Made by a program: the position numbers and the translations under genes
The notes under the pieces: model-generated
The model's database searches: none
Seen by the model: only the letters and a program-made list of their open reading frames with translations
What the model was told of the DNA's origin: nothing
Shown: positions 40,363-63,404 of the stretch, piece after piece
Layout of the letters: each line of letters opens with the position of its first letter
How positions within the stretch are numbered: position 1 is the stretch's first letter
NCBI RefSeq assembly: GCF_003268475.1
Contig: NZ_MCIF01000002.1
Location: 4,095,744-4,159,743, forward strand
Length of the DNA stretch: 64,000 nucleotides
Origin: Thermogemmatispora tikiterensis
GTDB lineage: Bacteria; Chloroflexota; Ktedonobacteria; Ktedonobacterales; Ktedonobacteraceae
Direction: 5' to 3'

Positions 40363-40868
40363 GGCGATTCTCCTTGTTCGTTGCTGCATATGACTGGACA
40401 GTACTCCCTGACCGGTAGACGCGCGGATCGGGGCGTGGCGCCGCGGATGCGACGCGGCGATGGCAATCCCTCGCGCTTGTGGCTGGCCAACTACTGGGCC
40501 ACAGCTGGTGGCCATGATTACGGGTACAATCCGCTCCTGCTCCTGCTGCCTGGCGAGCTGCTAGGAGGCGCCAGAATGCACGAGCGAGTGAGCACGTGAC
40601 AGGTAAAAGAAGAAGAGCACGCAGGGGGCGAGGTCAATGGTAGGGTCCCTGGGGTGAGACGCGCCGTGGTCCTGCGGCGGGTGGCATTGGCCTCACCTGG
40701 CGGCGGGCGCCCCGTCCCTGAAAGGGCGTCCACCGTTTCCCTACGTGTTCTTTACTTTATTATGCCGAGCGACCATGTACATCAGAAAGTACTTATGTTA
40801 TCATTTCCCTAGACATCTTTATCATTTCGAGGGGTTCTCTTCTTTTGGGCGTCGGGGGAGGCCTGTCC
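40363..40868. other. divergent intergenic region
   Basis: Contains an AT-rich stretch near 40740-40810 that probably holds the promoter of the STAND gene; boxes cannot be assigned confidently. No gene is supported. Confidence 0.5.
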
Positions 40869-43556
40869 ATGAGTAGCAACCGGTCGGTGGAGGAGCCACC
40901 GCGGCCCCGCGTGCGTCTCGTGGAGGCTCGCATGAGCCGTGGCTGGTCGCAGCAGGAGGTGGCTGAGCGACTGGGGACGACGCATGTCAATGTGAGCCGT
41001 TGGGAGCGCGGGGTAACGAAGCCCAATCCATATTTCCGGCGCAAGTTGTGCCGGCTGTTCGGGTTAACGGAGGAGGAGCTGGATCTGGCGCCCGCTGGGC
41101 CTGAGATCCCGGGGCGGGGGGCGCAGGTAGGGGATGGGGTGGCGGTGGAGACGGGTGGTGGTGGAACGGGACGGGGTGAGCAAGATCTGCAACGTGGCCC
41201 TGACTCTGGTCCGCTGGGGGATGCCGCGGGTGGGCGTCCGGCTGAGGCGGTTATTGATCCGATGATCCCTCTGCCGCCGCCGGTGCGCCTGGTGGGGCGC
41301 GATGCCGAGCTGCGGCGTATTAAGGGGCGTCTTTTTGCCGGTGAGGCGGTGGCGCTGAGTGCCTTGAATGGGTTGCCTGGGGTGGGCAAGACTTCGCTGG
41401 CGGTGGCGCTGGCGCATGATCCCGAGGTGCGTGCTTATTTCAAGGATGGGATTCTCTGGGCGGCGCTCGGGCCGCGTCCCAATATGACGGGGTTGTTGAG
41501 CCGTTGGGGGGCGTTGCTGGGTTTACCGGCGACGGAGGTGGCTGGGTTGACGAGCCTGGAGGCCTGGGCCAGGGCTTTGCGTACGGCGATCGGGCCGCGG
41601 CGGATGTTGCTGGTGATCGATGATGCCTGGCGGATTGAGGAGGCGCTGGCGTTGAAGGTGGGCGGGGCCCAGTGTGCGCATTTGTTGACGACGCGCTTTG
41701 CGCATGTGGCGACAGAGTTCGCGGTGGAGGGAGCGGCGGCGATCGCGGAGTTGGGGGAGGAGGATAGTCTGCAGCTCCTACGTTTGTTGGCTCCGACGGC
41801 GGTGGATCTGGAGCCGGAGCGCGTGCGGGCTTTGGTGCGGGCGGTCGGCGGTTTGCCGTTGGCGCTGACGTTGATTGGGAATTATTTGCGCAAGGAGAGT
41901 TATACGGGGCAGGTGCGGCGTATTCGGACGGCGCTGCAGCGGCTGAGCGATGCGCGGGTGCGCCTGGGGTTGACGGAGCTGCGGGGACCGGTGGAGGTGC
42001 ATTCGAGCCTGCAGGGGGAGCCGGCGCTGTCGCTGCAGTCGGTGATTGCGGTGTCGGATGAGCAGTTGAGCGCGGCGGCGCGCGCGGCGCTGTACGCGCT
42101 CTCGGTTTTTCCGCCGAAGCCAGCGAGTTTTTCTGAGGAGGCGGCTTTAGCGGTGGCGGCCTGCTCGACGGATGAGCTGGATGCGCTGGTGGATGCCGGC
42201 TTGCTGGAGAGCAACGGGGGCGATCGCTATCTATTGCATCAGGTGATTGCCGATTATGCGCGGGCGCGCCTGGAGGCCCAGGAGGAGGCGAGGGCGCAGG
42301 CCCCTTTTGGGCGCCTGGTGGAGTATGCGATCGCTTATGCTGAGAAGCATCGCACGGACTACGAGTTATTGGATCGAGAGAGCGCGGTGATTGTGGCGGG
42401 GCTGGAGGCGGCCTATATGCTGGGACGGCAGGAGGAGCTGGTGCGTGGGGTGGTGACGTTTGCGCCGTTCTTGCTGGTGCGTGCTCTGTATGGTGTGGCC
42501 GAGCAATGGCTGCAGCGCGCGCAGACGGCGGCCCAGGCCCTGGGTGATCAGCGCGGGCTGACAGGGGTACTGCTCTACCGTGGGCAGATTGCGCTGCGCC
42601 AGGGGGATTATACGAGCGCAGAGAGCTACTATCAGGAGGGGTTGCAGCTGGCCCGCGCCCAGGGCGATCAGGAGCGTATTTGTGCACTGCTGGCGGATTT
42701 GGGAATGGTATCGTGGAAGCGCGGGGAGTATGGTCATGCAGAGAGCTATCTGCAGGAAGGTTTGTGGCTGGCCCGCAGCATCGGGAATAGGGAACAATTG
42801 TGTGAAGTGCTTGCGACTCTAGGGGCCCTGGCAGCTCGCCAAGGAAACTATGTCCGGGCCGACACCTATCTGCAAGAGGGCTTGCTGTTAGCCCAAGCAA
42901 TTGGTGATCGAGAGCGTATATGTACACTGTTGTTAAATCTTGGCGCTTCGGCTTCTGAACAAGGAATGTTTATTAGTGCCAAAAAGTATTTTGAACAAGG
43001 CTTGTCTATTGCTAAGGATATAGGTCATAGAAGTTTAATGAGCGCTCTATTAAATAATCTAGGTGATATTTGCTTGGGTCAAGAAGACTATAATGAGGCA
43101 GAGCACTTCTTTATAGAAGCTTTGCAATTAGCACGTCAAATAGAACATCCAGAGTACATTAGTGCTTTCCTTCTTAACATTGGGCTTGTGGCCCGGAAAC
43201 GGGGAGATTATCAGCGAGCAGAACTTGCTTTTAAGGAGGGATTGAATATTGCCAGAAATTTAGGAATATCTTATCTTCTTTACGAAGGTCTCTATGAGTA
43301 TGGAAATCTCTGCCTCTTCCTTAGGCGTTTTGATGATGCAAGGAATGCTTTTGTTGAAATAATTAGTATTGCTCCAAGGGGAGGAATCGATGCTATAGCT
43401 CTTGCTAAGTATGGCCTAGCGAGGGTAGAGGCTTCTGAGGGGCATCTTGAGATTGCTCGCCAACTCGCTAATGAAAGCGTCGCGATACTGAAAGCTCTTG
43501 GCCACAGAAGTGCCAAGGAGGTACTTGAGTGGTTAAAATCATTAAAGAGTATTTAG
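40869..43556 (+). CDS. STAND regulator: XRE HTH - NB-ARC - TPR
   Basis: The 895-residue protein starts with an XRE helix-turn-helix (RLVEARMSRGWSQQEVAERL ... VNVSRWERG). A Gly-rich linker and an NB-ARC NTPase follow, with Walker A GLPGVGKTSLA (K174), Walker B MLLVIDDAW, HLLTTRF and the GLPLAL motif; then a winged-helix and about ten TPR units. STAND proteins use nucleotide state to switch after ligand binding to the C-terminal repeats, here probably altering DNA binding. From about 42850 the DNA becomes strikingly AT-rich (residues about 660 onward) although the TPR frame is unbroken. The ATG at 40869 follows GGGGGAGG by seven bases. A 42-residue exported-peptide gene faces it across a shared hairpin. 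Confidence 0.88.
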   Translation: MSSNRSVEEPPRPRVRLVEARMSRGWSQQEVAERLGTTHVNVSRWERGVTKPNPYFRRKLCRLFGLTEEELDLAPAGPEIPGRGAQVGDGVAVETGGGGTGRGEQDLQRGPDSGPLGDAAGGRPAEAVIDPMIPLPPPVRLVGRDAELRRIKGRLFAGEAVALSALNGLPGVGKTSLAVALAHDPEVRAYFKDGILWAALGPRPNMTGLLSRWGALLGLPATEVAGLTSLEAWARALRTAIGPRRMLLVIDDAWRIEEALALKVGGAQCAHLLTTRFAHVATEFAVEGAAAIAELGEEDSLQLLRLLAPTAVDLEPERVRALVRAVGGLPLALTLIGNYLRKESYTGQVRRIRTALQRLSDARVRLGLTELRGPVEVHSSLQGEPALSLQSVIAVSDEQLSAAARAALYALSVFPPKPASFSEEAALAVAACSTDELDALVDAGLLESNGGDRYLLHQVIADYARARLEAQEEARAQAPFGRLVEYAIAYAEKHRTDYELLDRESAVIVAGLEAAYMLGRQEELVRGVVTFAPFLLVRALYGVAEQWLQRAQTAAQALGDQRGLTGVLLYRGQIALRQGDYTSAESYYQEGLQLARAQGDQERICALLADLGMVSWKRGEYGHAESYLQEGLWLARSIGNREQLCEVLATLGALAARQGNYVRADTYLQEGLLLAQAIGDRERICTLLLNLGASASEQGMFISAKKYFEQGLSIAKDIGHRSLMSALLNNLGDICLGQEDYNEAEHFFIEALQLARQIEHPEYISAFLLNIGLVARKRGDYQRAELAFKEGLNIARNLGISYLLYEGLYEYGNLCLFLRRFDDARNAFVEIISIAPRGGIDAIALAKYGLARVEASEGHLEIARQLANESVAILKALGHRSAKEVLEWLKSLKSI

Positions 43557-43624: not shown

Positions 43625-43753
43625 CTAACGGGCCCATACGACAATATTCGGGCTTGCCGCGTGTGTCGCCAGCGGTGTAATCGTCAGAGCCAGAGCGACG
43701 ACGGCCAGCAGGACAACCAGCGGAACGATCCAGCGCAGATTCTTCTTCAGCAT
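43625..43753 (-). CDS. 42-residue Sec-type small exported peptide
   Basis: The tiny gene encodes two Lys, a long Leu/Val/Ala membrane core, an Ala-Thr-His-Ala-Ala cleavage-like region and a terminal SPNIVVWAR. GGGGAGG lies seven bases before the ATG, a stronger ribosome site than most genes in the window. If signal peptidase cuts, the mature peptide would have only 9-10 residues, the size of a signalling peptide. It ends 70 bases from the stop of the XRE-NB-ARC-TPR gene, on the opposite strand. In RRNPP systems of Firmicutes, a TPR regulator senses such a peptide encoded beside it; this analogy is inference. Alternatively it is a small membrane protein. Confidence 0.55.
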   Translation of the reverse strand: MLKKNLRWIVPLVVLLAVVALALTITPLATHAASPNIVVWAR

Positions 43754-45001: not shown

Positions 45002-45949
45002 TCAACCGTGATACGGTTTCTGGCCATAAGCGGCGACGACATGGTAGCGCGTCTGCAGCGTATTCCACTCCTGACCTGCCTGTTCGATGAGGGCGAGGAC
45101 CTCTTGCTGCTCCATCTGGAAGCGAGCTGCGATGAGAGAGCTGATGGCCTTACCGGCCTCGCGCAGATCCAGAGAGAGTAAAGAACCGACGCGCCCGCCC
45201 CAATCACCAAGTGGAATATCGATATCCTGGCGGTTGACCTGGATCAGCCCGGCCTGTTGCAGGAAAGAGTCTAGAGAGCGGAGGACTCCACCCTCGTTGT
45301 CGAGGCCGCGCAGGGCACCCAGTTGGCCCATGAGGTAGAGAAATTGCTGGGTAGCTGGTCCAGCTGGATTGAAATGACTGACATGGGTACCCGCCTCGAC
45401 CAACTCGACCCAGCCTCCGGGGACGGTGACGCGAGCAAGTTCTCGCACAACATTCGGCCAGGCCGCGAGGGGAATAGCCAGCACGAGCAGGCGTTGATGG
45501 ACGAAGTCGAAGATCTCATCTTCAAAAGGGAGGCCCTTGAGGGCGTCGCCCTGGACAAAGCGGTAGTTAGCTGGTGGAGTGGTGGCTTTGGCTCTGGCCG
45601 GCTCCAGATCGAGGCCAATGACCTCGGCCTGGGGGAATTGCTGAGCGATTTCAATGGCCCATTGGCCGGTGCCGCAGCCGACATCGAGAATGCGGCGGGG
45701 TTGGACGATGGGTGCTAAATAGTTGCCGCGCAGCGCGGAGCGCAGAACGTAATGTTGAAAATCGAGGCGATTAACCTCTCCCAGATCTTTGGGGAGCAGA
45801 TAAGGTTGCTCGTCAAGATAGCGGCGCGAGGCCAATGAACCTGTCTGGGGCGCCTCGCTAACTGTGGGACGAGGCGTAGGCTGAACCGAATCAGCAGGAG
45901 TGACGGAAGCGTTTGTCACGCGGCGCTGGCGAAAGAACCACCAGGGCAT
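45002..45949 (-). CDS. SAM methyltransferase, array copy A
   Basis: The 315-residue class-I methyltransferase begins with the array-specific MPWWFFRQRR motif. It continues with RRYLDEQPYLLPKDLGEVNR, LDFQHYVLRSALRGNYLAPI and the SAM motif ILDVGCGTGQWAIEIA, followed by IGLDLEP, FVQGDALKGLPF and FDFVHQR. The LPxDxxExxRLDxQH start resembles LaeA-like fungal methyltransferases, recalled from general knowledge. Substrate unknown. It is the most diverged copy and the last in the transcription direction. The ATG at 45949 follows AAGGAGG by eight bases. It is separated from copy B by a decayed gene fragment. Confidence 0.85.
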   Translation of the reverse strand: MPWWFFRQRRVTNASVTPADSVQPTPRPTVSEAPQTGSLASRRYLDEQPYLLPKDLGEVNRLDFQHYVLRSALRGNYLAPIVQPRRILDVGCGTGQWAIEIAQQFPQAEVIGLDLEPARAKATTPPANYRFVQGDALKGLPFEDEIFDFVHQRLLVLAIPLAAWPNVVRELARVTVPGGWVELVEAGTHVSHFNPAGPATQQFLYLMGQLGALRGLDNEGGVLRSLDSFLQQAGLIQVNRQDIDIPLGDWGGRVGSLLSLDLREAGKAISSLIAARFQMEQQEVLALIEQAGQEWNTLQTRYHVVAAYGQKPYHG

Positions 45950-46028
45950 GAGACATTCCTCCTTGCGGGCAAGTTTAACCTCATACGAGCTAAATAGTAC
46001 AGCATTAGGCAACGCCTTGTTCATCGCG

Positions 46029-46210
46029 TGAATGGGCTTGGCCCATAGGTCACAGCGAAGTAACAGCGTGTTCGGAGCTGGTTTCAGACCTGACAGGCAT
46101 GGTCAATGATGGCTAGCACTTCCTGCTCAGATCTGCTGAAACGACCTGCTCGGCTACACTGATGATCTCTCGGGCTTCACCCAGGGCGAAGGCGGTCAAG
46201 AAGCGGCAAT
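46029..46210 (-). pseudogene. decayed 3' end of a seventh methyltransferase
   Basis: Minus-strand translation gives LTAFALGEAREIIS, then in a shifted frame EQEVLAIIDHACQV, a TGA stop at 46086-46084, then NQLRTRCYFAVTYG. These match the C-terminal region of copies C-F (for example EQAVLQLIEQAYQEWNQFRTQFHFAVAYG of copy F read in order), with the Trp codon changed to a stop and a frameshift near 46129-46135. Weaker similarity may extend to about 46350. The catalytic core is missing. Confidence 0.75.
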
Positions 46211-46426
46211 GTCCCCTGACTCGCCCCCGGGAAGGGCGAGAAGCTGCTAGTGAGTGGCGGCAAGATCTCTTGCCGCTGAAGGCGAGCTAAGGGAGGCGTG
46301 AAACCTTGCAGTCGCTATTCGATCGAGAGCCTCAGCCTCAAACTGGGCCTTCTGCGAGGAATCTGGCCTAACCACCAGGATGGGACGGGGCCAGCCAGCT
46401 CCTGTGGCACTCTCATGAGCGTGAGT
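46211..46426. other. spacer with short hairpin beside pseudogene
   Basis: Contains a 9-bp perfect hairpin at 46257-46276 (GCGGCAAGA/TCTTGCCGC), which could end transcription from copy B. A faint remnant of the pseudogene may extend here. Confidence 0.4.
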
Positions 46427-47356
46427 CTAGGTAGTGGTTGGTGGTTTGTTCCCATAAGCGACGGCCAGCCGGTAGCAAGTATGGAATTCATCGAACTCTC
46501 CTACGGCTGCTTCGATCAGGTCAAGGACTTCCTGCTCTGAGATCTGGAAATGGGCCGCTATAGTGCCGCTGAGTCCCTTTGAACTCTCGCGAAAGTCGAG
46601 CGCTAGCAAAGAGCCAAGACGTCCTCCCCACTGGCCCAGTGGTACCTCAAAGGATTGAGACTGCACGCTGACCAGTCCGGCATCGCGCAAATAGCGGTCG
46701 AGAGAGCGCATGATCACTCCCTCAGTGTCAAGACCGCGCAGGGCTGCCAGCTGCCCTGCCAGGTGTAGATATCGCTGTGTGGCAGGACCAGCGGGGGTAA
46801 AATCAGCGGTTCCTGTTCCAAACTCGACGAGTTCGACCCAGCCGCCAGGAGCGGTGAGGCGAGCCAGCTCCTGGACAAGGCCCGGCCAGGCCCTCAATGG
46901 GATAGCCAGCCAGAGAAAACGCTGGTGAACGAAGTCGAAGGTCCCATTTTCAAAAGGGAGGCCCTTGAGGGCGTCGCCCTGGACAAAGCGATAGTTAGCT
47001 GGTGGAGTGGTAGCTTTAGCGCTGGTCGGCTCTAGATCGAGGCCGATGACCTCGGCCTGGGGGAACTGCTGGGCGAGTTCGAAGGCCCACTGGCCGGTGC
47101 CGCAGCCGACGTCGAGAATGCGGCGCGGCTGCCCGATGGGGGCCAGATAATTGCCGCGCAGGATGGCGCGCAGGATGTAATGCTGGAAGTCGAGGCGGTT
47201 GACTTCGCCCAGGTCCTTGGGGAGCAGATAGGGCTGCTCGTCCAGATAGCGACGGGCAGCCTCATCGGAGGCCGGGCGGGCTACAGACGGTTTGGCAGCG
47301 CTAGCATTGACGGAAGCGTTGGTTGCACGACGGCGGCGGAAGAGCCACCAGGGCAT
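46427..47356 (-). CDS. SAM methyltransferase, array copy B
   Basis: The 309-residue protein shares the array architecture: MPWWLFRRRR start, LPKDLGEVNR, QHYILRAILRGNYLAPIGQP, ILDVGCGTGQWAFELAQQ and IGLDLEP. Its C-terminal half differs from the others (ending VAYGNKPPTTT), where substrate choice is likely to be set. GGAGG lies eight bases before ATG 47356. The spacer to copy C (47357-47434) is almost identical to that between copies D and E. Confidence 0.86.
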   Translation of the reverse strand: MPWWLFRRRRATNASVNASAAKPSVARPASDEAARRYLDEQPYLLPKDLGEVNRLDFQHYILRAILRGNYLAPIGQPRRILDVGCGTGQWAFELAQQFPQAEVIGLDLEPTSAKATTPPANYRFVQGDALKGLPFENGTFDFVHQRFLWLAIPLRAWPGLVQELARLTAPGGWVELVEFGTGTADFTPAGPATQRYLHLAGQLAALRGLDTEGVIMRSLDRYLRDAGLVSVQSQSFEVPLGQWGGRLGSLLALDFRESSKGLSGTIAAHFQISEQEVLDLIEAAVGEFDEFHTCYRLAVAYGNKPPTTT

Positions 47357-47434
47357 AGTACAGACCTCCATTCTATGTCGTCGATGAGTGGCAGCCGGAC
47401 AGGCTGAGCGCTGGGAGCAGGCAGCGTCAGCGGG
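47357..47434. repeat. 78-base duplicated spacer, copy 1 (B/C)
   Basis: By eye it differs from the spacer at 49353-49430 at only three positions, and includes the copied ribosome site GGAGGTCTGTACT. It marks the unit that was duplicated. Confidence 0.85.
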
Positions 47435-48364
47435 TCAAGGCTTCTGGCCGTAGGCCACTATGAAAGAGCAGCTGGAATGCAGCTCATTCCATTCCTGGCA
47501 GGCCCTGTCAATGAGTTGGAGCACGTCCTGCTCAGGGATCTGGAAGCGAGCCGCCAGCGGGGCACTGATTGCTGTCCACATCGTGCGGAAGTCCAGAGCG
47601 AGTAGAGAGCCGATGCGGCCTCCCCATTCCCCTACAGGGATCTTGATGGGATGACATTGGATCTGGTTCAGACGAGCCTGGGCCAGATACTGATCGAGGG
47701 AACGTGCGACGACGCCCTCGCTATCCAAGCCTCGCAGAGCAGCGAGCTGGCCTATGAGAGATGCTACTTGCTGATTGGCTGGCCCAGAAGGAGTAAGGTT
47801 ACTGATATGGATGCTTGTCTCAACGAGTTCGAGCCAGCCGCCGGGGGCAGTGACCCGGGCCAGCTCCTGGACAGCCGCCGGCCAGGCCGCTTGAGGAATG
47901 GCTAGAACAAGGAGGCGTTGATGGACGAAGTCGAAGGAGTTGTCGTCGAAAGGGAGGCCTTGCAGGATGTCCCCCTGGACGAAGCGATAGTTGGGAGGGG
48001 GGGAAACAGAAGGCTTGACCTGTTCGAGGTCGAGGCCGATGACCTCGGCCTGGGGGAACTGCTGGGCGAGTTCGAAGGCCCACTGGCCGGTGCCGCAGCC
48101 GACGTCGAGAATGCGACGCGGCTGCTTGATCGGTGCCAGGTAGTTGCCGCGCAGGATGGCGCGCAGGATGTAATGCTGGAAGTCGAGGCGGTTGACTTCG
48201 CCCAGGTCTTTGGGGAGCAGATAGGGCTGTTCCTGCAGGTAGCGGCGGGAGCCTTGCAGGCGAGGCAGGGCGACCTCGCCCAGGCGCCAGCCACCGGAAG
48301 ACGAAGCGGGGGTAGCTGGGCGAGAGCCGCTGCGGGAGCGGCGGCGGAAGGGCCACCAGGGCAT
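47435..48364 (-). CDS. SAM methyltransferase, array copy C
   Basis: The 309-residue protein begins MPWWPFRRRSRS and shows ILDVGCGTGQWAFELAQQFP, GLDLEQVKPSVSPPPNYR and FDFVHQRLLVLAIPQAAWPA. AAAGGAGG lies eight bases before the ATG. At its 3' end a one-base deletion relative to copies D and F removes three codons, so it ends GQKP; copy E shares this deletion. A 293-base segment is identical to copy D. Confidence 0.87.
   Translation of the reverse strand: MPWWPFRRRSRSGSRPATPASSSGGWRLGEVALPRLQGSRRYLQEQPYLLPKDLGEVNRLDFQHYILRAILRGNYLAPIKQPRRILDVGCGTGQWAFELAQQFPQAEVIGLDLEQVKPSVSPPPNYRFVQGDILQGLPFDDNSFDFVHQRLLVLAIPQAAWPAAVQELARVTAPGGWLELVETSIHISNLTPSGPANQQVASLIGQLAALRGLDSEGVVARSLDQYLAQARLNQIQCHPIKIPVGEWGGRIGSLLALDFRTMWTAISAPLAARFQIPEQDVLQLIDRACQEWNELHSSCSFIVAYGQKP
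47946..48238. repeat. 293-base identical block, copy C
   Basis: Identical by eye to 48925-49217 in copy D. It covers the SAM-binding core from the LPF motif back to the QPYLLPKD region. Confidence 0.85.
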
Positions 48365-48404
48365 GTGCAAGACCTCCTTTCTATTTCCTCGGTGAGAGGC
48401 AGCA

Positions 48405-49352
48405 TCAGCGGGTCAAAGGTTTTTGGCCGTAGGCGACAGCGAAATGCCATTCGGTGTGGAACTCACTCCACTCCTGGTACGCCTGGTCAATTAGTTGGAG
48501 GATAGCTTGCTCAGAGCGCCCGAAGCGGGCAGCGATAGGGGCGCTGATGGCCTTGCAGGCTTCGCGCAGGTCCAGGGCCATCAGGGAGCCGATGCGTCCG
48601 CCCCATTCGCCCAGGGGAACGGAGAAGGGCTGGTAGCGGATGTTGACAAGGCCTGCCTCCTCCAGATAGCGACCTAGGGAACGCAGAACGATGCTCTCAG
48701 TGTCGAGGCCTCGCAGAGCAGCAAGCTGAGCTCCGAGCCTGTTGATCTCTTGGGTGGCGGGGCCAGAGGGCAGATAGTCCTGCAGAGCGGTGCCGACTTC
48801 CAGGAGTTCGGCCCAGCCGCCGGGAGCGGTGACGCGGGCGAGTTCCTGGACGACGCCCGGCCAGGCGGCCAGGGGGATGGCACCCACCAGGAGGCGCTGA
48901 TGGACGAAGTCGAAGGAGTTACTCTCGAAAGGGAGGCCTTGCAGGATGTCCCCCTGGACGAAGCGATAGTTGGGAGGGGGGGAAACAGAAGGCTTGACCT
49001 GTTCGAGGTCGAGGCCGATGACCTCGGCCTGGGGGAACTGCTGGGCGAGTTCGAAGGCCCACTGGCCGGTGCCGCAGCCGACGTCGAGAATGCGACGCGG
49101 CTGCTTGATCGGTGCCAGGTAGTTGCCGCGCAGGATGGCGCGCAGGATGTAATGCTGGAAGTCGAGGCGGTTGACTTCGCCCAGGTCTTTGGGGAGCAGA
49201 TAGGGCTGTTCCTGCAGATAGCGGCGGGACCCCTGCAGGCGAGGAAGAGCGACCTCACCAGGCAGCCAGCCACTGGAAGGCTGAGCGAGGTCGGCGGCGC
49301 GAGCAGCGGAGAGAGAACCACGAGAGCGGCGGCGGAAGAACCACCAGGGCAT
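48405..49352 (-). CDS. SAM methyltransferase, array copy D
   Basis: The 315-residue protein begins MPWWFFRRRSRGSLSAARAA, nearly the same as copy F. The SAM-binding core is identical at the DNA level to that of copy C over 293 bases, while the C-terminal half (LEVGTALQDYLPSGPATQE) resembles copy F. It is therefore mosaic. It ends GQKPLTR. GGAGG lies eight bases before ATG 49352. Confidence 0.87.
   Translation of the reverse strand: MPWWFFRRRSRGSLSAARAADLAQPSSGWLPGEVALPRLQGSRRYLQEQPYLLPKDLGEVNRLDFQHYILRAILRGNYLAPIKQPRRILDVGCGTGQWAFELAQQFPQAEVIGLDLEQVKPSVSPPPNYRFVQGDILQGLPFESNSFDFVHQRLLVGAIPLAAWPGVVQELARVTAPGGWAELLEVGTALQDYLPSGPATQEINRLGAQLAALRGLDTESIVLRSLGRYLEEAGLVNIRYQPFSVPLGEWGGRIGSLMALDLREACKAISAPIAARFGRSEQAILQLIDQAYQEWSEFHTEWHFAVAYGQKPLTR
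48925..49217. repeat. 293-base identical block, copy D
   Basis: Partner of 47946-48238. Flanks differ between the two genes, as expected for gene conversion or a recent recombination. Confidence 0.85.
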
Positions 49353-49430
49353 AGTACAGACCTCCATTCTATGTCGTCGATGAGAGGCAGCCGGACGGGC
49401 TGAGCGCTGGGAGCAGGAAGCGTCAGCGGG
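49353..49430. repeat. 78-base duplicated spacer, copy 2 (D/E)
   Basis: The near-identical partner of 47357-47434, same length, three differences seen. Confidence 0.85.
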
Positions 49431-50363
49431 TCAAGGCTTCTGGCCATAGGCGACAGTGAAGGTACCGTAGGAGTGGAGTTCGTTCCATTCCTGTCTGGCT
49501 CTATCGATGAGTTGGAGGATCTCCTGCTCGGGGAGATGGAACCGTGCGGCCAGGGGAGCGCTGATCGCCTTCCATGCTTCGTGAATGTCAAGAGCGGACA
49601 AGGCGCCGATGCGTCCAGCCCAGTCGCCGATCGGGACCTGGATGGGATGGCGCTGGATATTGATGAGGCCAGCCTGGGCCAAATACTGGTCGAGGGAGCG
49701 CATGACCGTCCCTTCACTGTCGATCCCGCGTAGGGCGGAGAGCTGTCCCAGGAGCGATACGAACTGCTCATTAGCTGGACCTGCTGGGCTGATAAGGTCG
49801 CTGATATGAATGCTCACCTCGACGAGTTCGAGCCAGCCGCCGGGGGCAGTGACCCGGGCCAGCTCCTGGACAGCCGCCGGCCAGGCCGCTTGAGGAATGG
49901 CCAGAACAAGGAGGCGTTGATGGACGAAGTCGAAGGAGTTGTCGTCGAAAGGGAGGCCTTGCAGGATGTCCCCCTGGACGAAGCGATAGTTGGGAGGGGG
50001 GGAAACAGAGGGCTTGACCTGTTCGAGGTCGAGGCCGATGACCTCGGCCTGGGGGAACTGCTGGGCGAGTTCGAAGGCCCACTGGCCGGTACCGCAGCCG
50101 ATGTCGAGGATGCGGCGCGGCTGCTGGATGGGGGCCAGATAGTTGCCGCGCAGGATGGCGCGCAAGACATAATGCTGGAAGTCGAGGCGGTTGACTTCGC
50201 CCAAATCTTTGGGGAGCAGATAGGGCTGTTCCTGCAGATAGCGGCGGGACCCCTGCAGACGAGGGAGAGCGACCTCACCAGGCAGCCAGCCGGAAGAGGG
50301 CTGGGCAGAGGGAGCTGTGCGAACGGTGTTACGGGAGCGGCGGCGGAAGAACCACCAGGGCAT
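49431..50363 (-). CDS. SAM methyltransferase, array copy E
   Basis: The 310-residue protein begins MPWWFFRRRSRNTVRTAPSA and has the same SAM core as copies C and D. Its middle (LLVLAIPQAAWPAAVQEL, GGWLELVEVSIHISDL) matches copy C, while its C-terminal end diverges (RARQEWNELHSYGTFTVAYG). It shares the truncating one-base deletion with copy C. AAGGAGG lies nine bases before the ATG. Confidence 0.87.
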   Translation of the reverse strand: MPWWFFRRRSRNTVRTAPSAQPSSGWLPGEVALPRLQGSRRYLQEQPYLLPKDLGEVNRLDFQHYVLRAILRGNYLAPIQQPRRILDIGCGTGQWAFELAQQFPQAEVIGLDLEQVKPSVSPPPNYRFVQGDILQGLPFDDNSFDFVHQRLLVLAIPQAAWPAAVQELARVTAPGGWLELVEVSIHISDLISPAGPANEQFVSLLGQLSALRGIDSEGTVMRSLDQYLAQAGLINIQRHPIQVPIGDWAGRIGALSALDIHEAWKAISAPLAARFHLPEQEILQLIDRARQEWNELHSYGTFTVAYGQKP

Positions 50364-50427
50364 AATCACAATCCTCCTTACTAGTCGATGAGCAGTCGAG
50401 AGGCAGAGAGCCTGAGTGCAGGCGGCC

Positions 50428-51375
50428 TCAGCGTGTCAAGGGCTTCTGGCCATAGGCGACGGCGAAGTGAAACTGTGTTCGGAACTGGTTCCACTCCTGA
50501 TAGGCTTGCTCAATGAGTTGCAGGACGGCTTGTTCAGAGCGAGCGAACCGGGCAGCGACTGGAGCACTCACAGCTTTCCTGGCTTCGCGCATGTCTAGGG
50601 CCAGCAGGGAACCGAGACGCCCGCCCCATTCGCCCAGGGGGACATCGAAGGGCTGGTAGCGGACGTTGACGAAGCCAGCCTCCTCCAGATAGTGGGCTAG
50701 GGAGCGCATCACAAGGCCCTCAGCGTCAAGTCCCCGCAGGGCGAGAAGCTGAGCTGAGAGTGTGTGGAATTCTTGGGTCGCGGGGCCAGAAGGAAGAAAA
50801 TCCTGCAGAGCAGTGCCTGCCTCAACGAGTTCGATCCAGCCGCCGGGGGCGGTGATGCGAGCCAGCTCCTGGACAGCCGCCTGCCAGGCCGCTTGAGGAA
50901 TGGCCAGAACAAGGAAGCGTTGATGAACGAAGTCGAAGGAGTCATTGTCGAAAGGGAGGCCCTTTAGAACATCCCCCTGAACGAAACGATAGTTGGGTGG
51001 TGGGGAAGCCGAGGGCTTGACCTGTTCGAGGTCGAGGCCGACGACCTCGGCCTGGGGGAACTGGTGAGCGAGTTCGAAGGCCCACTGGCCGGTACCGCAG
51101 CCGACGTCGAGGATGCGGCGCGGCTGCTCGATCGGTGCCAGGTAGTTGCCGCGCAGGGCAGCGCGGAGGGCGTAGTGCTGAAAGTCGAGGCGGTTAACCT
51201 CACCTAAATCTTTGGGGAGCAGATAGGGCTGTTCCTGCAGATAGCGGCGGGACCCCTGCAGGCGAGGAAGAGCGACCTCACCAGGCAGCCAGCCACTGGA
51301 AGGCTGAGCGAGGTCGGCGACGTGAGCAGCGGAGAGAGAACCACGAGAGCGGCGGCGGAAGAACCACCAGGGCAT
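50428..51375 (-). CDS. SAM methyltransferase, array copy F
   Basis: First gene of the array in transcription order. The 315-residue protein begins MPWWFFRRRSRGSLSAAHVA and ends GQKPLTR, like copy D. Core motifs are intact (ILDVGCGTGQWAFELAHQFP, GLDLEQVKPSASPP). AAAGGAG lies eight bases before the ATG. A candidate promoter with a TTGACA box lies about 420 bases upstream on the minus strand. Confidence 0.87.
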   Translation of the reverse strand: MPWWFFRRRSRGSLSAAHVADLAQPSSGWLPGEVALPRLQGSRRYLQEQPYLLPKDLGEVNRLDFQHYALRAALRGNYLAPIEQPRRILDVGCGTGQWAFELAHQFPQAEVVGLDLEQVKPSASPPPNYRFVQGDVLKGLPFDNDSFDFVHQRFLVLAIPQAAWQAAVQELARITAPGGWIELVEAGTALQDFLPSGPATQEFHTLSAQLLALRGLDAEGLVMRSLAHYLEEAGFVNVRYQPFDVPLGEWGGRLGSLLALDMREARKAVSAPVAARFARSEQAVLQLIEQAYQEWNQFRTQFHFAVAYGQKPLTR

Positions 51376-51994: not shown

Positions 51995-54058
51995 TCACTG
52001 TGGCTGCTGAGTCACGGCAGCGCTAATGCGACGAGCAATACTCACGAGCGCTTGCTCCCGAGCCGCAGGAGGTAGAGTAGTAAGCGGCTTCTGGGGATCG
52101 TTAGCAGGCTCGAAGCTCTGCAGCTCGCTCTCTTCAAAGAGGCAGGGGCTGACAATAATAGGGATAATCAAGGTGCCAGCAAGGCGGGCCTTCTCCAAAA
52201 GCCTTGGCAACTGCCTAGTCATGATAGTGTCGGACGCCAGGAGCGTGGCACTGACCAGGACAACGGCCACGCCCGCGCGCAAGATGGCATCCTCCAGTGT
52301 CTGCTCCCAGCGGCTGCCAGCGCTGATCAGCGTATCGTCCCAGACATCGAACACTCCCTTCTGTTCAAGAGGAGCCAGATGGCTACGCAAACGCTCCAGC
52401 CACCGCTTATCTTTACGAGCATAGCAGATAAAGATTTGCTGTCTGCTTGGTGCAGGGCGTTTGCCGACCTTACGAGCCAGCTGCTCCAAATTGCTGTGGC
52501 GTAGATAGAAAATAAGGGTCGGATCTTCCGCCAGCAGCACACCAACGGTGGGATCACAGAAGAGATGATACGCCAGATCGGGATAGGAAGCGATGGCTTG
52601 AGGCCAGCTTTCCTTGAAGAAGCGCTCCAGGTCGTGGGCGCGAGCGCGTCCTGGCTCCTCCTGCTGTAAAAGTGAAGGCCAGAGCACTCCCTCACGGCTC
52701 TGGCTCAGCTCTTCCAGCAAAGCGAGGCTGGTCTGATCGTAAGGCCCGCCAGCAGCGGCGAATTGCTTGATGGCAAGGTCAAATTTTCTCTCCAGCGTTT
52801 CCATCACATTCTGAACGGCCTTAGCAAGGTGATGCCGAATAGCAACTGGTGATGGCTGCGTCTGGATAATATTATTTTGCATGCAAAGATAATAGCAGAG
52901 GAATTGAGCCAGAATAAAGCTACCATCAACCAGGCGAAGAATATCCTCCTTACAGTCAAAGATCACGTTGAGAGCCTGCTCTCCCTGCCTGATCAGTTGC
53001 AAAATCTCCTCATCGCTGGCGTGGCCCATCTTAAAGCGATCGAAGCGCATAGCCGTATCGAAAGAGACGGAGCTGATGAAGCTCTGGCCCGTTCCTGGAA
53101 TACCGATGATCACCAGCTTACGATCTTTGGGTTGGGTATCCGCCAGCAGCTTCAAATAATCGACCAGCTCCTGGCGCAAGTCAGGCTCCAGGCGATGGAA
53201 GTCATCGATAATCACCACACCGCGATGCCACTCTGAGAGAGTGCGGAGCCGCTGGCGGTCAGCGGGCGCACGGGCACTCAAGAGAGTGATCGTCGGTCGC
53301 TCTGCTCTAAGTATCTCTTCCTCTCTGAGTTGCTGGACGGCTTTTTGCACCGCCGTGGTCTTGCCGATGCCCGAAGGCCCCTCGATGACCACGCTGCGCC
53401 CCGGCTCAACAAGAGCCAGCTTCAGGTGCTCGAAGATGGAAGGCGGCACAAAGGTCACTGTGGGCAGACCCGTACGCTTGAAGACCTCATCCAGGCGGTA
53501 GCTCGTAGGAGGCAGCCCTGACGCTGTCAATCCGCGTGTCCTGCTCTCCGAAGAAGCAGCCAGTGAGGGAGGCGAAAGGCGTCGCCGGTTCTGAAGCTCT
53601 CTGCAGATCAGGAGGACCTCATGAAGGATTTCCCGCAGCGCCTGCTCCCTGGCAATTTCTTCGCTCAGAGGACGCCCCGTGCGAGGGAGCAATTGCAAAG
53701 AAGCGAACGGTGTTCCCTCAAGCGGGGTAGGCCGGGCAAGAATGGGGAACAGCTGTAGCTCACCCCGTCGCGCGCGCTCTAATCCTAGCGAGATGGCTCT
53801 TGCGTAGATCGGCGATGCCAGCAGGTCGGGACTGATCAACAGCAGGAGCACATCGGCGGACTCGATATGCCGACGTAACTCCGCCTCCATGTGAGCATCG
53901 GGCCGTAGATCTGTGGATATGCGGAGAACGGAGCCCGGCAAGAACTCTAAGTAGTTCATAAATGGGAGGAGCAGGTAGAGAAGACGATGATCCTCGCGAG
54001 CGCAGATTACAAAAGTAAAGATAGTGGCTTGACGGTCAGGCTGCTCCGTTCTATCCAT
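51995..54058 (-). CDS. TIR - ATPase - TIR protein
   Basis: The 687-residue protein has an N-terminal TIR-like domain (residues about 10-155: TIFTFVICAREDHR, ADVLLLLISPDLLASP), and a P-loop ATPase with Walker A EGPSGIGKTT (226-234), Walker B VVIIDDFH and a LVIIGIPGTG strand. A second TIR domain follows (540-687: IFICYARKDKRWLERLRSHL, VWDDTLISAGSRW, VAVVLVSATLLASD, IIPIIVSPCLFEE). Bacterial TIR-STAND proteins often act in antiphage defence by NAD cleavage or signalling. Where active TIRs of this style carry Glu (NELP, VEM), these domains read RQLP and RAISL, so NADase activity is doubtful. The ATG follows GAGGAGGGAG by about ten bases. Confidence 0.82.
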   Translation of the reverse strand: MDRTEQPDRQATIFTFVICAREDHRLLYLLLPFMNYLEFLPGSVLRISTDLRPDAHMEAELRRHIESADVLLLLISPDLLASPIYARAISLGLERARRGELQLFPILARPTPLEGTPFASLQLLPRTGRPLSEEIAREQALREILHEVLLICRELQNRRRLSPPSLAASSESRTRGLTASGLPPTSYRLDEVFKRTGLPTVTFVPPSIFEHLKLALVEPGRSVVIEGPSGIGKTTAVQKAVQQLREEEILRAERPTITLLSARAPADRQRLRTLSEWHRGVVIIDDFHRLEPDLRQELVDYLKLLADTQPKDRKLVIIGIPGTGQSFISSVSFDTAMRFDRFKMGHASDEEILQLIRQGEQALNVIFDCKEDILRLVDGSFILAQFLCYYLCMQNNIIQTQPSPVAIRHHLAKAVQNVMETLERKFDLAIKQFAAAGGPYDQTSLALLEELSQSREGVLWPSLLQQEEPGRARAHDLERFFKESWPQAIASYPDLAYHLFCDPTVGVLLAEDPTLIFYLRHSNLEQLARKVGKRPAPSRQQIFICYARKDKRWLERLRSHLAPLEQKGVFDVWDDTLISAGSRWEQTLEDAILRAGVAVVLVSATLLASDTIMTRQLPRLLEKARLAGTLIIPIIVSPCLFEESELQSFEPANDPQKPLTTLPPAAREQALVSIARRISAAVTQQPQ

Positions 54059-60814: not shown

Positions 60815-61459
60815 ATGGGCAGTCCACACCCGTTGGCTCTGAACTGGGAAGAACTCTATGCTCGACTGCGTCGTCTGGTACGGCGGCTGATTGCGCGCTA
60901 TAGCGTCGCGGCCTGGCGCGGTCAAGAAGAAGATCTGGTCGAAGACATCGTCCAGGAGAGTGTCAGGCGCTTCATCGAGCGTCAGCCACGTGTTGAGCGT
61001 GGAGAGATCGAACCTGTGCGGTCGCCGGAGCATCTGCTGTTCACCATTGCCTGCAACTGTTGCCTGGACCTCTATCGGCGCGAGCGACGCCTGATTCACA
61101 CAGGTGGGGAGTATTTGCCTGTGCTCAGAGGGATGGAGGCAGGGGAAGCGACAGAGCAGGCCCTGGAAAGAGTTTATCAGCAAGAGCTGTTTACCATTGT
61201 GGCTCGCGAAGTAGAGCACTTCCCCCAGGGGCAGAGGCGGGCCCTGCTTATCGACCTGGCTGAATTGATGAGCTTTGATGAGGAGCCGACAGCGCTCCAG
61301 AATGCCTTTCTGGAGCAGGGCATCGATCTCAGCCACTATCGTGACTGGCCGGAGGACCGGCGGCAACATGAACAGCGCGTTGCACTGCGCAACCACGCCT
61401 ATCGGCGTCTGGCGCGATTGCCCAGTATCCGTGCCTATATTGCGGGCCATGAGCACTAG
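60815..61459 (+). CDS. sigma-70-like protein
   Basis: The 214-residue cytosolic protein has a region-2-like start (LVRRLIARYSVAAWRGQEED, DIVQESVRRFIE, FTIACNCCLDLYRRERR), resembling ECF sigma factors. The C-terminal half is helical but its region-4 helix-turn-helix is not obvious. It may be an atypical regulator rather than a true sigma factor. ATG 60815 follows GGAGGAGAAGG. Its last four bases overlap the end of the convergent methyltransferase gene. Confidence 0.62.
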   Translation: MGSPHPLALNWEELYARLRRLVRRLIARYSVAAWRGQEEDLVEDIVQESVRRFIERQPRVERGEIEPVRSPEHLLFTIACNCCLDLYRRERRLIHTGGEYLPVLRGMEAGEATEQALERVYQQELFTIVAREVEHFPQGQRRALLIDLAELMSFDEEPTALQNAFLEQGIDLSHYRDWPEDRRQHEQRVALRNHAYRRLARLPSIRAYIAGHEH

Positions 61460-62337
61460 CTCCGCGGCTTATAACCCCAGACCGTCAAAAAGAACTGCAG
61501 GCCGCAGAAGCTCTCATCCGCTGCCTCGGCGCGCGCCTGTTCATAGAGGCGATTGAAGGCCTCATGGCTCAAGCCGACCACCTTCAGATAGAACGGTTCG
61601 AGCAGCTTAAGAGAGACAAGGCCATTCTGATACCAATCCTCGTAGCGAGGCGTGCCGGCGGAAATGCTCTCGGCATAGGCGCGCATCTGGATCGAGACAC
61701 AGCCGGCCTCGCGTAGCAAGCGCTCCAGCATGGGCAACACATCGAGGTGGTGCCGTGTCTCCGAGAAGGTATAGCCAGCGCGTGTCAGTCCGAGGGCCAG
61801 CAAGAGAGACAGCTCCTCGCAAGCCGGTTTATTGCAGATCGGCAGATCTGCCTCTGTCAGACGGATAATGCCGCCGGGGCGGCAAATGCGCATGCACTCC
61901 TGTAGAAAAGCGGGCCATGAGCGGGCCGGCATGAACGTTGAGATGAAGCGAGCATTGATTAAATCAAAGCTCTCGTCCTTAAAAGCCAGCGGCTTTAAGG
62001 CATCCATGACCTGGAAAGAGACGTTGGGCAACTGCTGAGTCGCGGCCAGTGTGCGAGCGAACTCGATCATCCGCTGACTGATATCGATACCGACCACACG
62101 TAGATGGCGATAGGTCTCAGCCAGCTCCAAAGCCCAGCCACCAGGGCCGCAGGCCACATCAAGCACATCCTGCAGGCCCGAGACATCTGTCAGCTCCGGC
62201 AGGGGGCCGCCCATAGCCCGGCTTGCCAGCTGGCCATGATGCAGCAGGCGAGCCAGCTCAGCCGTATTTTCCGCGTCGATAATATAGGTGCCGCTGCTGT
62301 TCAAGAGGGTCTCAACCTGCTGGAGACCGGTCAACAT
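61456..62337 (-). CDS. SAM methyltransferase (UbiE-like), not of the array family
   Basis: The protein of about 293 residues has a class-I SAM motif DVLDVACGPGGWALELA, VVGIDIS, FQVMDALKPL and a CRPGGIIRL strand. It starts MLTGLQQVETLL and contains YIIDAENTAELARLLHHGQL, a start seen in many Ktedonobacteria methyltransferases; the MPWW and LPKDLGE motifs of the array are absent. The gene frame is open to a GTG at 62400 that overlaps the stop of the regulator gene, so translational coupling is possible; ATG 62337 has AAAGGA eleven bases upstream. It probably forms an operon with the GAF regulator. Confidence 0.8.
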   Translation of the reverse strand: MLTGLQQVETLLNSSGTYIIDAENTAELARLLHHGQLASRAMGGPLPELTDVSGLQDVLDVACGPGGWALELAETYRHLRVVGIDISQRMIEFARTLAATQQLPNVSFQVMDALKPLAFKDESFDLINARFISTFMPARSWPAFLQECMRICRPGGIIRLTEADLPICNKPACEELSLLLALGLTRAGYTFSETRHHLDVLPMLERLLREAGCVSIQMRAYAESISAGTPRYEDWYQNGLVSLKLLEPFYLKVVGLSHEAFNRLYEQARAEAADESFCGLQFFLTVWGYKPRS

Positions 62338-62396
62338 AGCCCATGCGATCCTTTCTTTTCTTCCCTGGAGCGTGGCATGCGCTGAGCTGACTGTGC

Positions 62397-63404
62397 TCAC
62401 TCAGGGGCCTGCTCCGTCGGCGACTGCACAGGAGTGGCCAAGAACGCCGCCATCACCTGCTCCTCAGCCTCGCGACGTGTCAACGGCTGGCCCCGTCGCT
62501 CGGCCTGACTCAGCAGTTCATTCACGCGTTGATTGAAGGTTGCCATATAGGCATTCTGGACAGATTCAGAGGGCATCAGGCGCAGCTCAATGTCTTTGAT
62601 ATCATAGAACTCATCATCACGAAAAGCCAGGCTCAGCAGATAGGCGTAGTTTTGGATGAGCGCCTGCCGTCCGTGCAAGAAGTAGTCGCGCTGCGTACTG
62701 ATGATCAGTAAGGCACCGGCCACCTGGCCCGCGCGCTGCAGGGGGTAAGCGGCGGCACTGCGGGCCTCGCTGACTAGAGCCTGGGGAATGACAAAGTCGG
62801 AGGCCTCCTGCAGATTCTGCACCACGATCGGGCGGCATTGGATGACTGCGTAGCCGACCAGCGACTCGGCCCCCAGAAAGTAGCCACGGCGGGCGATGCT
62901 TGTCAGGGCCTGACTCTTCTCCAGAAAGACCTCCCGGAGACAGGTCACCTTCTGCTGGGGAGGAAGCGGACGTTGACACTGGGCAATGCTGGCGGCAATA
63001 CCGATATGCTGCGGATCGAGCTGGCGAATCAGCTGCTGCATCACCAGGTTCATAATCGTCCAGGAGCGCAGGCTCTCCACGACCGTCGCGTGGGCTTCGA
63101 GGATACGCGCATAGAGCACCGGCGGTACATCCTTCACCACCGGGTCGATGAAAACCGAGCCGGGGTCATCCTCCAGCGCGTCCGGGAACTCCTGGCGGAT
63201 CAGCTGGATCAGCTGCTCGCGATGGGGCGGTAGCGCCTCAACCAGGCGATTGAGCAGCGAGCGTGGCCGCGGAGACGATTCGTGCGTCGCCCAGCGGGTG
63301 AGCGTGACCGGGTCAACGCCCATTTCGTTGGCTATGCGCTGTTTCTCTTTGGTATCCCGAATAACAGCAGCGAGGAACTCGCGCCAGGTTCTGGGTTCTT
63401 GCAT
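62397..63404 (-). CDS. HTH - GAF-like regulator
   Basis: The 335-residue protein starts with a helix-turn-helix (LAAVIRDTKEKQRIANEMGV, DPVTLTRWATHESSPRPRSL) and carries a GAF-like domain near residues 130-265 (SIARRGYFLGAESLVGYAVI, QCRPIVVQNLQEAS, SAAAYPLQRAGQVAGALLII). It probably senses a small ligand and regulates transcription. The C-terminal tail is helical. The methyltransferase gene follows immediately, with a four-base overlap (GTGA) at its alternative start. The ribosome site is weak. Confidence 0.72.
   Translation of the reverse strand: MQEPRTWREFLAAVIRDTKEKQRIANEMGVDPVTLTRWATHESSPRPRSLLNRLVEALPPHREQLIQLIRQEFPDALEDDPGSVFIDPVVKDVPPVLYARILEAHATVVESLRSWTIMNLVMQQLIRQLDPQHIGIAASIAQCQRPLPPQQKVTCLREVFLEKSQALTSIARRGYFLGAESLVGYAVIQCRPIVVQNLQEASDFVIPQALVSEARSAAAYPLQRAGQVAGALLIISTQRDYFLHGRQALIQNYAYLLSLAFRDDEFYDIKDIELRLMPSESVQNAYMATFNQRVNELLSQAERRGQPLTRREAEEQVMAAFLATPVQSPTEQAPE

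What the first reader, a model, noticed from the sequence alone, without database searches (positions are those of the whole stretch)
45002..51375. Six-gene tandem array of paralogous SAM methyltransferases with a shared MPWW-FRRR start
Seen: six consecutive minus-strand genes of 309-315 residues, each with a good ribosome site, share an N-terminal MPWW motif, a PYLLPKDLGEVNR segment, an intact SAM motif VGCGTGQW and divergent C-termini. Known: large local expansions of one methyltransferase family are rare in bacteria. Inference: a set of enzymes with related but different substrates, possibly a diversification locus. The LPxDxxExxRLDxQH start resembles LaeA-like proteins from memory.
Basis: partly seen in the sequence, partly recalled or inferred. 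Interest (0 to 1): 0.8.

Follow-up and report, generated by a model that had tools for sequence, protein, structure and literature searches.

The report
Methyltransferase array with swappable specificity halves
A heat-loving bacterium carries a row of six related methyl-transferring enzymes whose cofactor-binding halves are kept alike by recombination within each species while their other halves form distinct types shared between species, which looks like a natural way of keeping one enzyme chassis with many specificities.

Summary
In detail: six intact, distinct class I SAM methyltransferase genes (309-315 aa) lie in tandem on the minus strand, with a decayed copy between genes 5 and 6. The genus is Thermogemmatispora (Ktedonobacterales). 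The locus, with the same flanking genes, occurs in three relatives with 7, 9 and 10 intact copies.

The new result is how the array evolves. Residues 40-178 (SAM half) tend to cluster by genome; residues 179-312 (C half) cluster by type across species. Each half rejects the other's tree. Synonymous divergence is lower in the SAM half in 117 of 117 within-genome pairs. 45 of 117 pairs show a significant conversion-like tract. C types kept between species are under purifying selection (dN/dS at most 0.24 in 33 of 34 pairs) and occur in different orders. I read this as one SAM-binding chassis homogenised by recombination, with retained and exchanged acceptor-side halves. Substrates are unknown.

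Next to the array lies a 42-aa exported-peptide ORF with invariant leader and variable tail, convergent with an HTH-NB-ARC-TPR gene whose TPR half differs between species with different tails. The pairing recurs in nine genera and looks like an undescribed peptide-signalling system.

The parts
50428..51375 (-). MT gene 1 (most upstream), 315 aa; C half (aa 179 on) 50428-50841
   Evidence: Methyltransf_25 6.2e-19
49431..50363 (-). MT gene 2, 310 aa, C type 'B' (with G005 copy 7 and a G001 copy cut by its contig end); C half about 49431-49838
48405..49352 (-). MT gene 3, 315 aa; C half about 48405-48818
47435..48364 (-). MT gene 4, 309 aa, C type 'D' (with G005 copy 1, G002 copy 5, G003 copy 5); C half about 47435-47839
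46427..47356 (-). MT gene 5, 309 aa, C type 'E'; C half about 46427-46843
46021..46158 (-). Decayed remnant of a further MT copy (C-terminal end recognisable; frameshifted traces continue upstream)
   Evidence: family D6; aa 271-315, 53%
45002..45949 (-). MT gene 6 (most downstream), 315 aa, C type 'Z', both halves follow orthology; C half about 45002-45415
51995..54058 (-). TIR/AAA protein, conserved upstream flank of the array
40845..43556 (+). HTH-NB-ARC-TPR protein, conserved downstream flank; TPR half differs between species
43625..43753 (-). 42-aa exported-peptide ORF, near-invariant leader, variable last six residues, convergent with the NB-ARC-TPR gene

Best explanation
The locus is a tandem family of SAM-dependent class I methyltransferases built as one chassis with many specificity modules. 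Shown by sequence: the SAM-binding half (up to about the end of beta-5) is homogenised among the copies of each genome by recombination, while the C-terminal half (after beta-5: helices, beta-6 and beta-7) exists as distinct types, most of them kept by purifying selection, shared between species and found in different orders. Inferred mechanism: every C half in an N-C-N-C array is flanked on both sides by similar N halves, so ordinary homologous recombination can convert N halves and duplicate, delete, move or import C halves without a dedicated recombinase; C halves of one genome have mostly diverged to about 63% identity, too far to convert each other readily. Inferred function: genes 1-5 are 40-78 nt apart and probably co-transcribed, giving a set of enzymes that bind SAM alike but methylate different acceptors. 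The aromatic-basic N-terminal tail plus a disordered linker may dock them on the membrane, which would favour lipid-like or membrane-associated acceptors.
For: SAM half versus C half within four genomes: mean nucleotide identity per 20-codon window 0.75-0.93 versus 0.59-0.69; mean pS 0.23-0.34 (aa 40-119), 0.42-0.49 (aa 120-178), 0.68-0.72 (aa 179-312); N pS below C pS in 117 of 117 within-genome pairs. AU test: N data reject the C tree (p 1.3e-6), C data reject the N tree (p 7e-59). Genome labels on 37 array tips change 14 times on the N tree (shuffled mean 22.4, minimum 17 in 2000 shuffles) but 26 times on the C tree (P 0.999). Longest-run test on synonymous codons: 45 of 117 pairs pass a per-genome threshold (W 5/15, G003 23/45, G005 12/36, G002 5/21). 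Upper quartiles of pairwise changepoints lie at aa 184-186, beta-5 being 175-186. Between species, types D and J show C halves of 90-100% in nearly all 60-nt windows, over N halves of 62-98% (examples in the full report). Five of seven dispersed tandem comparisons show the contrast. C-type dN/dS at most 0.24 in 33 of 34 pairs. Class I fold. N-terminal motif in 28 of 42 non-array family members versus 8 of 113 other proteins.
Against: No substrate, activity or expression data. Only the eight strongest pairs per genome were printed, and one of those (G002 copies 2 and 4, aa 260-308) lies in the C half, so C halves also convert at times. Deep nodes of the N tree are weak (support 19-58) and G003 copies are not a clean clade. 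Divergence differs between loci in this genus (29 G003-G005 baseline genes, pS 0.10-0.69; 0.10-0.49 without the five family genes; TIR gene 0.08-0.10), so low C-half divergence between species may be part of general interspecies recombination. For types H and I the flanks are also similar. Types E and Z mostly follow orthology in both halves (N pS exceeds C pS in 6 of 16 pairs, against 14 of 18 for the other types; counted). Genes 1 and 3 have no clean orthologues. The old L090 and L091 pairs show little contrast. Changepoint medians scatter (aa 155-184). The C types were defined on the C tree itself.
Confidence: 0.65

Rival explanations
1. Cassette replacement comes first: recent duplicates of one gene received divergent C halves from elsewhere, including other species, so N halves look alike because the duplicates are young, not because of conversion.
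For: C-half identity between species that falls off in the N half for types D and J; C types in different order in each species.
Against: Short partial tracts inside N halves and scattered changepoints indicate conversion within N halves; E and Z types keep their own N halves in most genomes, but G003 copy 8 has an E C half on a resident-type N half.
Confidence: 0.25
2. Simple tandem duplication followed by faster or relaxed evolution of the C half, without recombination.
For: C halves of class I methyltransferases generally vary more than SAM halves (general knowledge, recalled).
Against: Synonymous sites show the same contrast, and the two halves support different trees.
Confidence: 0.03
3. 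Gene dosage: all copies do the same reaction and C-half differences are drift within one pocket.
For: No substrate known; copy number varies from 6 to 10; a remnant and broken copies exist.
Against: C types are conserved between species with low dN/dS while differing widely from each other.
Confidence: 0.2
4. A regulator-like, LaeA-type role rather than small-molecule methylation.
Against: No call links the family to LaeA; the fold matches natural-product and phosphobase methyltransferases, among many others.
Confidence: 0.07
5. Assembly artefact.
For: None seen.
Against: Copies are 65-83% identical to the first gene and the array occurs in independent assemblies, one in a single contig.
Confidence: 0.01

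Closest known systems
Concerted evolution by gene conversion in prokaryotes (PMC6053082; abstract and found passages seen)
   Same: Paralogues of one genome resemble each other more than their orthologues; recurrent conversion.
   Different: Here only the SAM half behaves so; the C half of the same gene keeps orthologous types. The abstract counts 26 genes, and the passages name archaeal corrinoid-system methyltransferases among them; I saw no half-gene case in them but did not read the whole text.
Recombination of NRPS adenylation domains that changes specificity (PMC9205934; found passages seen)
   Same: Intragenomic recombination inside an enzyme moves the specificity-giving part on a conserved frame.
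   Different: Here the units are free-standing enzymes in a tandem array, not modules of an assembly line.
Cassette-type specificity families (type I HsdS target domains, Rhs tips, pilin cassettes; recalled, not compared)
   Same: Conserved anchor with interchangeable variable part.
   Different: All six copies are full genes with ribosome sites; no recombinase was recognised among the ten window proteins scanned, four of which had no Pfam match.
3mgg methyltransferase of Methanosarcina mazei; LahSB; phosphoethanolamine methyltransferases
   Same: Class I fold; among the best sequence or structure matches.
   Different: 12-21% identity in the structure alignments; no shared function can be claimed.

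Membership tests
Class I SAM-dependent methyltransferase (Methyltransf_25/11) | Profile score above the curated cut-off | tested here: met
   All six, 67.3-70.5 bits against 27 for Methyltransf_25
Class I SAM-dependent methyltransferase (Methyltransf_25/11) | Glycine-rich SAM motif and class I fold | tested here: met
   D-V/I-GCGTGQW in all six; model of gene 1 with pLDDT 80.9, best Foldseek match 3mgg 1.1e-16
Class I SAM-dependent methyltransferase (Methyltransf_25/11) | Methyl transfer from SAM | not testable with these tools
   Needs assay
MenG/UbiE, BioC and other named equivalogs | NCBIfam curated cut-off | tested here: not met
   Best row per protein 39.7-44.3 bits against cut-offs of 155-235; the best 25 rows per protein were listed, none reaching its cut-off
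LaeA/UMTA-like | Sequence similarity to fungal LaeA | not tested
   No LaeA sequence or model was compared
Gene family under concerted evolution | Paralogues closer than orthologues | tested here: inconclusive
   Met for aa 40-178 of most copies, not met for aa 179-312 and not for types E and Z
Gene family under concerted evolution | Conversion tracts | tested here: met
   45 of 117 pairs
Recombinase-driven cassette system | Recombinase gene nearby | tested here: not met
   None recognised among ten window proteins scanned; four of the ten had no Pfam match, and not all window proteins were scanned
Recombinase-driven cassette system | Silent cassettes with one expression site | tested here: not met
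   All six copies are full genes with ribosome sites; expression itself unknown
RRNPP-type peptide signalling (for the neighbouring locus) | HTH plus TPR receptor beside a short exported propeptide | tested here: met
   HTH_3, NB-ARC and TPR in one protein; 42-aa leader peptide beside it; an NB-ARC domain is not part of the RRNPP definition as I recall it
RRNPP-type peptide signalling (for the neighbouring locus) | Peptide export, re-import and binding to the receptor | not testable with these tools
   Needs experiment; the signal peptide is judged by eye

The most novel reading that the evidence does not exclude
The region is one diversification island. The methyltransferase array keeps exchangeable acceptor-side halves on a homogenised SAM chassis, and the adjacent exported peptide with its HTH-NB-ARC-TPR receptor is a pherotype-like pair that exchanges its specificity (TPR half plus peptide tail, about 1 kb) between conserved flanks in the same manner and may control the array, so that kin groups tune which methylated products they make.
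Probability: 0.2. Interest if true: 0.87.

Novelty: new variant of a known kind. Interest (0 to 1): 0.62.

Why it matters
If right, nature already runs the chassis-plus-cassette experiment that enzyme engineers attempt: a fixed SAM-binding half and many acceptor halves, with a natural crossover zone ending at about the end of beta-5. It gives ready-made chimera boundaries, a set of enzymes for substrate discovery in a little-studied thermophilic lineage, and a bacterial case in which recombination homogenises one half of a gene while the other half is kept diverse. The neighbouring peptide/NB-ARC-TPR pair, if functional, would be peptide signalling in Ktedonobacterales with an NB-ARC (STAND-type) receptor; the papers listed by the searches run here (capped listings) include none on such a receptor.

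Tried and rejected
Very long open frames around some partial family matches (922, 1488, 1580 aa) looked like multidomain fusions; they adjoin runs of N in withheld stretches that read as open frame, so rejected, and partial matches near them may be cut by masking. Recurrent neighbours of dispersed copies were sought in 13 loci: one cluster (14 ORFs) occurs in 7 loci and one (6 ORFs) in 6; these ORFs were not annotated by any search and gave no substrate. Defence link: PADLOC, run on two of the six array proteins and the two flank proteins, gives for the former the generic methyltransferase stretch of mad2 (and for one of them weak type II methyltransferase matches), and mainly TIR or TPR matches for the flanks; not pursued. 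Literature searches on Thermogemmatispora methyltransferases, LaeA with Ktedonobacter, Ktedonobacter methyltransferases/duplication, and methyltransferase or polyketide-synthase gene conversion were seen as listings only (apart from the two papers named under Closest known systems), several of them capped at 10-15 papers; none of the listed titles or abstract starts describes this locus. Arrays outside the genus were judged only from the positions listed, whose match lists were cut. C-half transfer between species as sole cause of low C-half divergence was weighed and left open because baseline genes vary.

Rows dropped before counts: searches use copies scoring above 540 bits plus G003 copy 10; left out were the broken G002 copies, a cut G001 copy at L070 2968-3450, and the dispersed copies L073 6907-7845 and L076 389-1351. 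Within-genome counts use only W, G002, G003 and G005; the G001 fragments were not counted there. The trees also hold six dispersed copies as outgroup. Alignment A2 for the model holds 50 sequences; of the 52 found, two were left out. Of 46 N-termini printed, two array genes and two duplicates were left out.
Full report
WHAT IS THERE. Six complete minus-strand genes of 309-315 aa occupy 45002-51375. All score well above the Pfam cut-off for Methyltransf_25 (67.3-70.5 bits against 27); the best NCBIfam row per protein is 39.7-44.3 bits against cut-offs of 155-235. The best solved relative by sequence of gene 1 is 3mgg (6.6e-12). Genes 1-5 are separated by 40-78 nt with a ribosome site each; between genes 5 and 6 lie 477 nt with a frameshifted remnant of another copy. 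In its own 5.97-Mb genome the first gene's protein has 76 matches at E up to 0.001, itself and the array included and many distant or partial, with 26 at E up to 1e-40.

WHERE. The array is flanked by the same genes in G002, G003 and G005: TIR/AAA, DUF4878 and AMP-ligase upstream and HTH-NB-ARC-TPR downstream. Intact copies: window 6, G002 7 (plus two broken), G003 10, G005 9; G001 has family genes on two short contigs, one of them (L071) tied to the locus by its downstream flank. In G004 the NB-ARC 3' end, the peptide and the 3' part of one methyltransferase lie on one 3861-base contig that ends inside the gene, so whether G004 has an array is open. Beyond the genus, relatives are common in the class (39 of 47 genomes and 22 of 26 genera have a match at E up to 1e-40, the genus included); those listed outside the genus are 41-48% identical (list cut).

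C HALVES ARE KEPT AND MOVE. For the 34 between-species pairs of one C type, C-half dN/dS is at most 0.24 in 33 and 0.54 in one that rests on few changes. For types B, D, H, I and J the N half is the more diverged at synonymous sites in 14 of 18 pairs, for E and Z in 6 of 16 (counted). Profiles are clearest for D and J: G005-1 with G002-5 has 92-98% over the C half, 53-73% in the 180 nt after it, and 80-92% over the N half except its last window (97%); G005-6 with G003-7 has 92-100% over the C half and 80-83% in the three windows before it. For H and I the flanks are also similar, and gene 6 with G005-9 is even throughout. The order of types differs between species. Against over-reading: the TIR gene is also unusually similar between G005 and G002/G003 (pS 0.08-0.10, against 0.31-0.33 for the AMP-ligase), and 29 G003-G005 baseline genes range from 0.10 to 0.69 (24 without family genes: 0.10-0.49), so interspecies recombination seems general here.

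MECHANISM. In an N-C-N-C array each C half has similar N halves on both sides. Homologous recombination alone can then convert N halves and gain, lose, move or import C halves; no recombinase was recognised among ten window proteins scanned, four of which had no Pfam match. That N halves are still similar enough to recombine and C halves mostly are not is inference from the identities.

FUNCTION. The model is a class I methyltransferase with residues 1-40 of low confidence (below 50), read as disordered. In eight C-type representatives the elements up to beta-5 are largely invariant and those after it vary. Acceptor binding by the C half is general knowledge of the fold, not shown here. The array proteins start M-P-W-W-x-F-R-x-R, and an aromatic-plus-basic start (at least two aromatic and three basic residues in the first 14) is found in 28 of 42 distinct non-array family N-termini against 8 of 113 other proteins (the 42 are related to each other, and starts were chosen by rule, some doubtful). 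I read it as a docking tail, perhaps for membranes; this is inference.

THE NEIGHBOUR. Between array and HTH-NB-ARC-TPR gene lies a 42-codon ORF, minus strand 43625-43753: a signal-peptide-like leader, then SPNIVVWAR. In G005 it ends SPNVTWWTY, in G002 and G003 SPNIYWWPL, in G004 NPNWVWWTL. In its own genome only one further match, at E 5, was found. Of 20 leader matches in 31 genomes I inspected 16, from nine genera; all lie beside an HTH-NB-ARC-TPR relative on the opposite strand, 3' ends facing, with these limits: in G004 only the receptor's 3' end is on the contig, in one G012 locus only TPR-part matches were found, and in another G012 locus the receptor's last part did not align. The four not inspected are weak (E 0.05-0.09). 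In 13 of 16 the tail has P-N or P-D followed by tryptophan within a few residues; 15 of 16 tails hold a tryptophan. Between species the receptor's aa 151-300 is 98-100% identical but aa 701-900 only 32-54% in 50-residue windows, except G002-G003, which share one peptide tail and keep 90-98%; these two are also the closest pair by the AMP-ligase (pS 0.19), so relatedness contributes. At DNA level G005 and G002 are 89-100% identical from about nt 400 to 1800 of the compared stretch, 36-77% for about 1 kb covering TPR half, gap and peptide tail, 97-100% for some 300 nt over the leader, and lower again beyond. A pair from another genus with different tails shows a similar protein profile (0.86-0.98 at aa 151-600, 0.36-0.60 at 651-900; L121/L122). 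Only 1 of the 11 loci from other genera has a methyltransferase-family match within the fetched stretch, and that a distant one, so a link to the array is unproven. The papers listed by three searches (1, 10 and 15 shown) include none on an NB-ARC receptor of peptides.

VERDICT. Observation confirmed, interpretation partly supported and sharpened: a new variant of a known kind (partial concerted evolution with retained specificity modules) in a stand-alone enzyme family.

Noticed in passing
window 43625-43753 (-) and 40845-43556 (+); L067-L069, L119-L130: A 42-aa exported-peptide ORF with near-invariant leader and variable tryptophan-containing tail sits convergent to an HTH-NB-ARC-TPR gene whose TPR half differs between species except between G002 and G003, which share the tail. 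The pairing was seen in all 16 leader matches inspected (of 20), from nine genera, two of them with only part of the receptor matched. It looks like an undescribed pherotype-like peptide-signalling system.
   Followed up: partly
window 51995-54058: Protein with two TIR stretches and an AAA domain directly upstream of the array, ThsB-like TIR match 1.2e-31; its synonymous divergence between G005 and G002/G003 (0.08-0.10) is much lower than that of the nearby AMP-ligase (0.31-0.33), suggesting interspecies exchange.
   Followed up: partly
window 61459-62400: A further, distant methyltransferase of the same broad family (37% identity over query residues 79-230), next to a GAF-domain protein.
   Followed up: no
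G000 C2, about 0.40-0.60, 0.75, 2.4-2.5 and 4.8-5.0 Mb: Many dispersed relatives of the array genes; some partial matches adjoin withheld stretches.
   Followed up: partly
L067 5434-5859 and 7415-8226: Two broken array copies in G002: one with an internal deletion, one split over two frames.
   Followed up: no
L095: A relative with MPWW start (45% identity) in a metagenome-assembled record titled Proteobacteria; transfer or mis-binning not examined.
   Followed up: no
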